DNA from: Limisphaerales bacterium
GTDB taxonomy: Bacteria > Verrucomicrobiota > Verrucomicrobiia > Limisphaerales > BOG-1460
Assembly (NCBI GenBank): GCA_003159675.1
Contig: PLQC01000126.1
Span: 1-59,706, forward strand
Reading direction: 5' to 3'
DNA length: 59,706 bases
Made by a program: the position numbers and the translations under genes. The notes beneath the pieces were generated by a model. It was not told the origin of the DNA. It did not search any database and worked only from the letters and a program-made list of their open reading frames with translations. Within the stretch, counting starts at the first letter, position 1, and the number at the start of each line of letters is the position of its first letter. Of the stretch, positions 47,171-52,577 are shown piece by piece.

Positions 47171-48643
47171 ATGACCACCCAGAATGGCACAGCAAACAGC
47201 GTTTCCGGCGCCACATACGACATGAAGGATTCCTTGGTGTTCGGCCAAACCAGTCAGGGAACCGAAATCCACGCCACGCTGCTGCGGTTCACGCGCTTCC
47301 TGGCGGCATTCGAGATTTACAGCCCCACCCTCATCCTGCGCACTTCGGAAGTGCTCAGTGACTTCAGAATTGTGCTCCGCGACCGGACGATTTACTCAGG
47401 TCGTGCCGTCATCCGAACCCTGGTCAGTACAGGACTGGCTACGATCTGCGAAGCGACCCTCAACGAGGACTCCTGGATGGATGTGGAGTTTACCTCCGAA
47501 ATGCTCTCCGATGGCAGGCTCGAAAACGAATTCACCGGCTTCGTGCAGGAATGGCAGAAGCATTATCGGGTCGTGCCCGAATTCAAAGTGGTCACGGCGG
47601 ATATGCAGAGCTATCTCTCGGACTTGCGCCTCTGGCTGGAACAGATCGAACTCGAAATTCGTTCCTCTCCTTCACTGGATCGGAGTCAACTTGAGCGTGA
47701 CGTGATCGGTAAACTGGCCGACCCCATCGTCCGTTCTATCGATGCGTTCATCGAACGGTTCGAATCGATTGCCGGCAACCTTGAGCCGGACCTGGAGCCC
47801 ATTCATCGCAGTTACTTGCGCCGCCAACTCCATCCGTTGATCCTCAGTTCCCCTTTTGCTTATCGTGCCTATCATAAGCCACTGGGATTCGCCGGTGATT
47901 ATGAGGTGGTGGATATGATGTTCAGGCCGCCCTATGAAGGTGGCACACTGTTCGCAAAAGTGATGAATGTTTGGCTGCTCGGCCAGGCACCCGTTCAGGC
48001 GCATCGTAACCGGGTGATGTATCTGAAACGCCGACTCCTGGAAGAAGCCGCCCGCGCAAACGCTTTGCGCAAGGTGGCGCGCGTTTTCAACCTGGGTTGC
48101 GGCCCGGCAGTCGAAGTGCAGCAGTTTCTGCAGGAGTATGGCTCAGTCGAACAGATGCACATGACGCTGGTCGATTTCAGTGAAGAAGCCCTCCAATATC
48201 TACGAGGCATATTGACGGACATGGACAAGGGACGCGGTTACCGCGCTCCAATACAGTTGGTCAAAAAGACCGTCCACCAGATACTCAAAGAATCCTCGAA
48301 ATCAGTCGTTCGATCGCCAAACGAACAGTATGACTTCGTTTATTGCGCCGGCCTGTTTGATTACATGTCCACTCAAGTATGCAAACGGCTCATGAATACG
48401 CTTTACGATATGCTCGCCCCCGGCGGCCTTCTGCTGGCCAGCAACCTGAGCGCTGTTATGAACAGTTCACACCCGTTCCGCTATTCGATGGAGTACATGC
48501 TGGGCTGGCACTTGATTTACCGCAACAGACAGGAATTGGCTGTGCTGGCCCCTGACAAGGCACCGTCGGACAGTGTCTCGGTAACTGCCGAAAACACGGG
48601 TGTGAATGTATTCATGGAGGTGCGAAAGCCCACAAATGCCTGA
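47171..48643 (+). CDS. PhcB-like SAM methyltransferase with PilZ-like N-terminal region (3-OH fatty acid methyl ester synthesis family, putative)
   Basis: N-terminal PilZ-like beta region; VARVFNLGCGPAVEVQQFLQ SAM motif I; YDFVYCAGLFDYMSTQVCKRLMNTLYDMLAPGGLLLASNL; gene order with the next two kinases. Confidence 0.72.
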   Translation: MTTQNGTANSVSGATYDMKDSLVFGQTSQGTEIHATLLRFTRFLAAFEIYSPTLILRTSEVLSDFRIVLRDRTIYSGRAVIRTLVSTGLATICEATLNEDSWMDVEFTSEMLSDGRLENEFTGFVQEWQKHYRVVPEFKVVTADMQSYLSDLRLWLEQIELEIRSSPSLDRSQLERDVIGKLADPIVRSIDAFIERFESIAGNLEPDLEPIHRSYLRRQLHPLILSSPFAYRAYHKPLGFAGDYEVVDMMFRPPYEGGTLFAKVMNVWLLGQAPVQAHRNRVMYLKRRLLEEAARANALRKVARVFNLGCGPAVEVQQFLQEYGSVEQMHMTLVDFSEEALQYLRGILTDMDKGRGYRAPIQLVKKTVHQILKESSKSVVRSPNEQYDFVYCAGLFDYMSTQVCKRLMNTLYDMLAPGGLLLASNLSAVMNSSHPFRYSMEYMLGWHLIYRNRQELAVLAPDKAPSDSVSVTAENTGVNVFMEVRKPTNA

Positions 48644-51314: not shown

Positions 51315-52577
51315 ATGGAAAATCCTTACGATTACAGGAAATTTGCAATCCTCTACGTGGATGATGAGGAGAAGTCCTTGAAATACTTCGCGCGCGCTTT
51401 CGAGGACCAGTTTCGGATTCTGACGGCGGTCAACGCCAAGGAGGGCCTCAAGCTGCTCGAACAGCAGGGGGGGGAGATCGGCGTGCTGATGACCGACCAG
51501 CGCATGCCCGGTGAAAAGGGCGTCTGGCTGCTCGAAAAGGCGCGCCAGCTTCATCCCCACATCATTCGCATCCTCGCTACCGCCTATGCCGACATGGATG
51601 CCGCCATCGCGGCCGTCAATTCGGGGGCCATTTACAAATACGTCACCAAACCCTGGGAACCGCCCCAGCTCGACCAGACGCTCAAGCGCAGTCTTGAGTT
51701 TTTCCTGGTGCAACGCGAGCGCGACCAGTTGTTGCGCGAAAAAATGTCCGTGTTGCACAACATGATGATCGCCGACCGGATCGTGAGCCTGGGATTGCTG
51801 GCAGCCGGCTTGAGCCACCACATTCGGAACGGATTGGTGGCGGTGAAGACCTTTTTGGACCTGGCGCCGGCCAAAATGGCCGAGGAGAAAATGGACCTCA
51901 ACGGGTTGCGCAACCCCGATTTTTGGAAGGAATACTATCAAAATGTCCAGGGCCAGATCGAAAAGATCAACAACCTGCTCAAGGACCTCTGGACCGCCTC
52001 CGAAAAACCGGCATTCGAGTTTGCCGATCTCGTGCGCGTCCGCGAAGTGGCCGCCTCGAGCATCGAAGGGCTCCAGGCCGCCTTCGCGGCCAAGAATATC
52101 CAGGTGCAGAACGACATTCCGGATTCGCTCCCGCCATTAAGGGTGGACAAGCCCAAATTCTACCGCCTCTTCGATTTGCTCCTGAAGGACGAGCTGGCCA
52201 CGCTTCCCTCCGGCAGCCGCGTCATCCTCTCGGCCCAAACGCCCGCCGACGCAAGCCAGAAGCCCAGCCTCCTCATCCAGGTCAGCGACAACGGCCCCGG
52301 GCTCCCGCAGGAGGCGTTGCGCCTGGTGTTCGATCCCTTTGTCGTGCGCAGCGATTCCCCGGTCGAATACGGGATCCATCTGATGGCCTGTTACTTTATC
52401 GTCCACCACCACGGCGGAAAAATCGAGGCGCGCAGCGAGAACGGCCGCGGAACGACCTTCACAATCCAGCTTCCCCTCGATCCAAACGTCGCCCCCGTCG
52501 TGGAAAACGACACCGAGTTTCTTCGGAAAGTGCTTCTCAACGACACCCTTTGGGAAAAGCTCATCAGCTCGGAGTAA
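51315..52577 (+). CDS. Response regulator receiver fused to histidine-kinase transmitter (PhcR/PhcQ-like)
   Basis: FAILYVDDEEKSLKYFARAFEDQFRILTA, LMTDQRMPGEKGVWLLEKA, LAAGLSHHIRNGLVAVKTFL, VSDNGPGLPQEALRLVFDPF. Confidence 0.88.
   Translation: MENPYDYRKFAILYVDDEEKSLKYFARAFEDQFRILTAVNAKEGLKLLEQQGGEIGVLMTDQRMPGEKGVWLLEKARQLHPHIIRILATAYADMDAAIAAVNSGAIYKYVTKPWEPPQLDQTLKRSLEFFLVQRERDQLLREKMSVLHNMMIADRIVSLGLLAAGLSHHIRNGLVAVKTFLDLAPAKMAEEKMDLNGLRNPDFWKEYYQNVQGQIEKINNLLKDLWTASEKPAFEFADLVRVREVAASSIEGLQAAFAAKNIQVQNDIPDSLPPLRVDKPKFYRLFDLLLKDELATLPSGSRVILSAQTPADASQKPSLLIQVSDNGPGLPQEALRLVFDPFVVRSDSPVEYGIHLMACYFIVHHHGGKIEARSENGRGTTFTIQLPLDPNVAPVVENDTEFLRKVLLNDTLWEKLISSE

What the first reader, a model, noticed from the sequence alone, without database searches (positions are those of the whole stretch)
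47171..52577. Candidate PhcBSR/Lqs-like fatty-acyl quorum-sensing operon outside the Proteobacteria
Seen: three consecutive + strand genes, the first two overlapping and the third 30 nt on. They encode a SAM methyltransferase with a PilZ-like front half, a multi-TM histidine kinase, and a receiver fused to a histidine-kinase transmitter. Known: Ralstonia phcB (3-OH fatty acid methyl ester synthesis), phcS (membrane kinase) and phcR/phcQ (receiver plus kinase-like output) have this order and unusual architecture; Legionella Lqs is analogous. Inferred: a complete make-and-sense circuit for a fatty-acyl ester signal in a Verrucomicrobiota-like genome. The kinase also carries a receiver and a second transmitter, so the relay would be longer than the known version.
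Basis: partly seen in the sequence, partly recalled or inferred. Interest (0 to 1): 0.85.

Follow-up and report, generated by a model that had tools for sequence, protein, structure and literature searches.

The report
Phc-type fatty-ester signalling operon, Verrucomicrobiota
This bacterium, from a phylum far from the plant pathogen Ralstonia, carries a relative of Ralstonia's gene set for making and sensing a fatty-acid methyl ester signal, with an enlarged sensor kinase and a neighbouring fatty-acid pore; the gene set is common in its order, so this kind of bacterial communication is probably far more widespread than described.

Summary
The methyltransferase is the genome's only PhcB homologue (reciprocal unique hit, E 1e-96, full length). 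The kinase's six-TM front end is recognised by a PhcS-sensor profile built from Burkholderiales alone (E 3e-29; none of the other kinases tested from this genome, no reversed control). Its second transmitter groups with PhcS; the first transmitter plus receiver is an inserted module. The third protein's receiver is closest to PhcQ, more than PhcR, and its 'kinase' half looks dead: the N-box Asn is replaced in every ortholog read. The cluster is conserved in its order (33 of 58 genomes have the methyltransferase) and reaches other classes of the phylum. Lqs is not a relative: it uses a different synthase. Not shown: the product, the ligand, any phosphotransfer, or a PhcA-like output. Verdict: a real, divergent Phc-type system outside the Proteobacteria, a new variant of a known kind.

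The parts
47171..48643 (+). PhcB-family SAM methyltransferase (490 aa): PilZ-like beta barrel, helical middle, Rossmann methyltransferase domain; proposed fatty-acyl methyl ester synthase
   Evidence: Full-length match to the Burkholderiales PhcB profile, 392 bits over 8-460; unique reciprocal hit; AlphaFold pLDDT 84
47228..47464 (+). PilZ-like N-terminal beta barrel (residues about 20-98)
   Evidence: Fold match of a separate model to PilZ structures; no Pfam PilZ match
47876..47902 (+). Family motif KPLG[YF]AGDY (residues 236-244)
   Evidence: Invariant or nearly so in PhcB and Verrucomicrobiota rows
48338..48364 (+). Family motif [VI]YCAGLFDY (residues 390-398)
   Evidence: Invariant or nearly so; the two motifs were the scan patterns that gave 589 confirmed relatives
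48636..51284 (+). PhcS-type hybrid sensor kinase (annotated ORF from 48606; likely start 48636)
   Evidence: Pfam; ATGCCTGA overlap with the methyltransferase stop
48705..49214 (+). PhcS-type six-TM sensor domain (ORF residues 34-203)
   Evidence: Burkholderiales-only PhcS sensor HMM, E 3e-29; six hydrophobic segments
49248..49970 (+). Inserted transmitter HK1 (phosphoacceptor H235)
   Evidence: Separate clade, 100/100, absent from PhcS and from short-form kinases
50136..50495 (+). Inserted receiver (Asp562)
   Evidence: Pfam Response_reg E 3.6e-28 for the protein; own clade in the receiver tree
50541..51281 (+). PhcS-equivalent transmitter HK2 (phosphoacceptor H677)
   Evidence: Groups with PhcS and short-form transmitters, 97/96
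51315..52577 (+). PhcQ/PhcR-like regulator: receiver plus degenerate transmitter
   Evidence: Best hit in the genome for both PhcR and PhcQ; PhcQ HMM 181 bits, PhcR HMM 154 bits
51735..52514 (+). Degenerate transmitter (predicted pseudokinase)
   Evidence: N-box Asn replaced (LLxDE-type) in every ortholog that covers it; GLGL box lost
52974..55019 (+). REC-GAF-PAS-HK protein, conserved fourth gene in part of the order (accessory, probable)
   Evidence: Same-strand ortholog after gene 3 in L131, L132, L143, L147, L148
45496..46833 (-). FadL-family outer-membrane transporter, divergent neighbour of the methyltransferase
   Evidence: PF03349 E 2.4e-44; adjacent to the methyltransferase in 20 of 30 order loci
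41227..42501 (+). Second FadL-family transporter; with the first, the only two in the genome

Best explanation
A Phc-type make-and-sense circuit. Shown by sequence: a PhcB-family methyltransferase, a kinase with a PhcS-type membrane sensor and PhcS-type transmitter (HK2) plus an inserted HK1-receiver pair, and a PhcQ-like receiver protein form a conserved operon. Inferred from Phc: the methyltransferase uses SAM to methylate the carboxyl of a (3-hydroxy) fatty acid; the ester leaves and re-enters the cell, in this order probably helped by the adjacent FadL pore; the six-TM sensor binds it; HK1 and HK2 pass phosphate through the internal receiver and on to the receiver of gene 3. Gene 3 then acts by binding a partner, as PhcQ binds PhcA, not by kinase activity.
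For: PhcB: Cupriavidus PhcB finds one place in this genome, the window gene (E 1e-96); PhcB HMM 392 bits over the full length; alignments. PhcS: PhcS picks the window kinase first and second among 56 kinase places; sensor HMM E 3e-29, with none of the other kinases tested from this genome and no reversed control at E<=10; HK2 with PhcS 97/96; reference PhcS carry the phosphoacceptor at H230, as published (PMC11960443). Gene 3: best of 12 places for PhcQ (121 against 55 bits) and of 48 for PhcR (89 against 57). Synteny: a PhcS-sensor kinase directly follows the methyltransferase in 30 of 33 order loci and 20 of 20 loci elsewhere in the phylum. FadL: adjacent in 20 of 30, co-occurrence p 1.5e-5.
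Against: No chemistry; identity to PhcB is only about 35-37%, so the substrate may differ. No PhcA-like output gene was identified. The N-box loss in gene 3 breaks a strict PhcR analogy. FadL is not adjacent outside the order or in Burkholderiales loci, so it cannot be a general requirement. Kinase specificity was not tested.
Confidence: 0.66

Rival explanations
1. Homologous but repurposed: the enzyme methylates another acid (for example an aromatic, isoprenoid or glycolipid acid), and the sensor reads that product or a membrane property. It is cell signalling, but not with 3-OH fatty acid methyl esters.
For: About 35% identity to PhcB; large sequence spread in the phylum; top structural neighbours are assorted small-molecule methyltransferases.
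Against: All family motifs and the cognate sensor domain are kept together; the FadL neighbour fits a fatty acyl product.
Confidence: 0.22
2. Self-sensing of fatty-acid or membrane state rather than quorum sensing: the ester stays in the cell or envelope, FadL imports outside fatty acids, and the relay adjusts lipid metabolism.
For: FadL and an acyltransferase-like gene nearby; FadL is best known for uptake (general knowledge); no density response shown.
Against: FadL is absent from about a third of order loci and from loci elsewhere in the phylum that keep the operon; Phc relatives signal between cells (PMC8578825).
Confidence: 0.11
3. Lqs-like alpha-hydroxyketone system.
For: Only the general plan: synthase next to a membrane kinase and a response regulator.
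Against: The synthase is a SAM methyltransferase of the PhcB family; the Lqs synthase LqsA is a PLP enzyme, and the two systems differ in genes and signal (PMC10653808).
Confidence: 0.01

Closest known systems
Ralstonia / Cupriavidus PhcBSRQ (3-OH PAME / 3-OH MAME quorum sensing)
   Same: Full-length methyltransferase homology, six-TM sensor domain, PhcS-type transmitter, PhcQ/PhcR-type receiver, gene order B-S-(R/Q), closely packed genes
   Different: Verrucomicrobiota host; kinase has an inserted HK1-receiver; one receiver gene in place of PhcR and PhcQ, with a degenerate transmitter; FadL neighbour; no identified PhcA; about 35% identity
Leptospira LvrA-LvrB
   Same: Kinase with HK-REC-HK followed by a REC-HK protein; best NCBIfam match of the kinase; phosphotransfer from LvrA to LvrB was shown (PMC5863495)
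   Different: LvrA is cytosolic with a PAS sensor and no TM regions (PMC5863495); the match excludes the sensor; LvrB has a working phosphoacceptor and kinase, whereas gene 3 here looks degenerate
Legionella Lqs
   Same: Synthase, membrane sensor kinase and response regulator as a general plan
   Different: PLP-dependent synthase and different genes and signal (PMC10653808)
Pseudomonas aeruginosa oxylipin signalling with ExFadLO
   Same: A FadL-family protein is reported as required to export oxygenated fatty acids (2013 paper cited in PMC6377657; only the citation was read)
   Different: Synthase and receptor are unrelated (general knowledge); FadL function in the window is inferred from linkage only

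Membership tests
Phc system | PhcB-family methyltransferase, orthologous by reciprocal search | tested here: met
   the only PhcB hit in the genome
Phc system | PhcS-type membrane sensor domain | tested here: met
   Burkholderiales-only HMM, E 3e-29, with negative controls
Phc system | PhcS-type transmitter with phosphoacceptor His | tested here: met
   HK2, H677; groups with PhcS, 97/96
Phc system | Separate PhcR: receiver plus active histidine kinase | tested here: not met
   Gene 3 has the domain order, but its N-box is degenerate and its transmitter is a separate clade; other members of the phylum have PhcR-like genes (L217, L220)
Phc system | PhcQ-type receiver protein in the operon | tested here: met
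   PhcQ HMM 181 bits over 11-187; reciprocal best
Phc system | Conserved gene order B-S-then receiver | tested here: met
Phc system | Makes and senses 3-OH fatty acid methyl ester | not testable with these tools
   Needs expression and GC-MS
Phc system | Output through the LysR regulator PhcA | not tested
Lqs system | PLP-dependent autoinducer synthase LqsA | tested here: not met
   The synthase-position gene is a SAM methyltransferase
Lvr system | Soluble PAS-HK-REC-HK kinase | tested here: not met
   Six-TM PhcS sensor instead (PMC5863495)
PilZ c-di-GMP binders (methyltransferase N-terminus) | PilZ fold | tested here: met
   Foldseek top hits, at modest E-values
PilZ c-di-GMP binders (methyltransferase N-terminus) | RxxxR and [DN]xSxxG ligand motifs | tested here: inconclusive
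   Not seen by eye in alignments; no Pfam PilZ match

The most novel reading that the evidence does not exclude
Fatty-acyl ester quorum sensing is chiefly a Verrucomicrobiota trait, and the Ralstonia-type phc operon is a trimmed version derived from within that diversity; in the window's order the system has its own outer-membrane FadL channel for the signal and ends in a pseudokinase scaffold.
Probability: 0.35. Interest if true: 0.82.

Novelty: new variant of a known kind. Interest (0 to 1): 0.68.

Why it matters
A 2023 survey limited to Pseudomonadota genomes placed the phc cluster in Betaproteobacteria (PMC10653808), and I found no paper describing it elsewhere. If it works here, a largely uncultured phylum has a testable quorum-sensing circuit. 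The FadL linkage would offer a candidate answer to how a hydrophobic ester crosses the outer membrane. The short and long kinase forms within one order, and receiver proteins with and without a transmitter across the phylum, show how a two-gene relay grows, and suggest PhcQ descends from a receiver-kinase.

Tried and rejected
Lqs membership: rejected on the synthase. Fusion of PhcS and PhcR as the origin of the long kinase: considered because L213 has a split TM-HK1 / REC-HK2 pair, but HK2, not HK1, groups with PhcS, and PhcR's transmitter is elsewhere; insertion preferred. Direction of transfer between phyla: the full-length tree puts PhcB with some Verrucomicrobiota (100/99), and adding methyltransferase-only outgroups leaves PhcB nested, but outgroup branches are very long, so not claimed. 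A solved homologue: none, best sequence E 0.08. Using a locus id as search centre failed. Plasmid search gave one full-length relative (Paraburkholderia graminis). Papers on Phc in Verrucomicrobiota: none found; one search demanded whole words and is uninformative for the truncated terms.

Full report
What is there. The three ORFs are at the stated places with the stated domains. The kinase probably starts at 48636, so genes 1 and 2 overlap by the 8-nt ATGCCTGA. The kinase has six predicted TM segments, then HK1, receiver and HK2.

Reference set. I needed real Phc clusters. A Paraburkholderia graminis plasmid and a scan of named genomes gave 80 betaproteobacterial loci, including Cupriavidus, Paraburkholderia, Janthinobacterium and Nitrotoga. 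Most carry genes of the sizes published for PhcB, PhcR and PhcQ in the Ralstonia solanacearum complex (464-468, 368-374 and 336-337 aa; PMC8578825): for example 464, 442, 379 and 342 aa for B, S, R and Q in Nitrotoga. In P. graminis and close relatives the R gene is a receiver only. The PhcS phosphoacceptor is H230 in Nitrotoga and in an unnamed Burkholderiaceae genome, the residue reported for Ralstonia PhcS (PMC11960443). No named R. solanacearum locus was retrieved, so 'PhcB' here means this syntenic family, not the Ralstonia protein itself.

Methyltransferase. Window against P. graminis: 35% over 464 aa. Cupriavidus PhcB against the window genome: one place, the window gene, E 1e-96. A profile of 18 PhcB sequences scores it 392 bits over its whole length. 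One automated source names homologues as 3-hydroxypalmitic acid methyl ester synthesis proteins, so the family link is not new to annotation pipelines. AlphaFold (pLDDT 84) shows a beta barrel, a helical middle and a Rossmann domain; the barrel modelled alone matches PilZ structures.

Kinase. A sensor profile built only from Burkholderiales-type PhcS finds the window kinase (residues 34-203, E 3e-29) and its relatives, but no ORF from 20 stretches around other kinases of the same genome and no reversed control. In the transmitter tree HK2, the short-form kinases of five order members and PhcS group together (97/96), while HK1 is its own clade (100/100). The simplest history is insertion of HK1-receiver between sensor and transmitter. 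The bootstrap of that tree had not fully settled.

Third gene. PhcQ and PhcR both pick it first in the genome. The PhcQ profile fits better and runs through the receiver into the first helices of the transmitter. The N-box Asn is replaced in every ortholog that covers it, the GLGL box is lost, and a few have also lost the phosphoacceptor. In other families of the class the gene is a receiver with about 200 further residues and no detectable transmitter, the size of PhcQ. Two genomes (L217, L220) have a PhcQ-like gene followed by a PhcR-like one; that PhcQ-like receiver groups with PhcQ (96/92), and the methyltransferases of the same genomes fall near PhcB. Published PhcQ binds PhcA and stabilises it (PMC13320629); a binding role for gene 3 is inferred from this.

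Conservation. 34 of 58 relatives have a methyltransferase match, 33 of them strong. In an even draw of the phylum 31 of 394 match, 23 strongly (E below 1e-60, the window included). In a draw of 387 genomes from the class of Nitrotoga two match at full length, one being Nitrotoga itself; these draws are not equally sampled, so the contrast is indicative. The kinase follows the methyltransferase in 30 of 33 order loci (exceptions: contig end, broken genes, truncated kinase) and 20 of 20 others.

FadL. The genome has two FadL-family genes and both are in this window. Counting order loci with enough upstream sequence, FadL is the methyltransferase's neighbour within about 1.1 kb in 20 of 30; I made this count, adding L128 and L144, whose over-extended ORFs hid the adjacency. 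Presence across 58 genomes: both 31, methyltransferase only 2 (both genomes under 80% complete), FadL only 10, neither 15; Fisher p 1.5e-5 (shared ancestry is not corrected for). No FadL was found in the betaproteobacterial loci, with a window-derived query that could miss divergent ones. An acyltransferase-like gene often accompanies FadL, so FadL may have a second role.

Judgement. Homology of the parts and their order is strong. That the product is a 3-hydroxy fatty acid methyl ester used for quorum sensing is a transfer from Phc at about 35% identity and remains untested. Long relay, pseudokinase and FadL partner make this a variant of Phc, not a plain member: one feature, a separate active PhcR, was tested and not met. 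Absence of prior description is limited to the open-access papers searched.

Noticed in passing
L223:2089-4146: A same-class genome has a receiver domain fused to the front of the PhcB-family methyltransferase (685 aa), suggesting direct phospho-control of the synthase.
   Followed up: partly
L213:10589-13306: Kinase split into a sensor-HK1 protein and a REC-HK2 protein, the same boundary at which PhcS and PhcR are separate genes.
   Followed up: partly
window 44474-45499 with 41227-42501 and 45496-46833: An acyltransferase-like gene (weak PapA_C match) travels with FadL in several genomes; here it sits between the two FadL genes with a B12-binding radical SAM protein (42626-44362).
   Followed up: partly
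window 52974-55019: REC-GAF-PAS-HK protein, fourth gene of the operon in several order members; its place in the relay is unknown.
   Followed up: partly
L125, L127, L128, L131, L132, L152: Order relatives often carry one or more extra receiver proteins of 390-460 aa downstream of the operon, absent from the window.
   Followed up: no
L022:5082-7701: A Pseudanabaena plasmid has a methyltransferase (MTase domain only) beside a sensor kinase and a response regulator on the opposite strand, a possibly analogous pairing.
   Followed up: no
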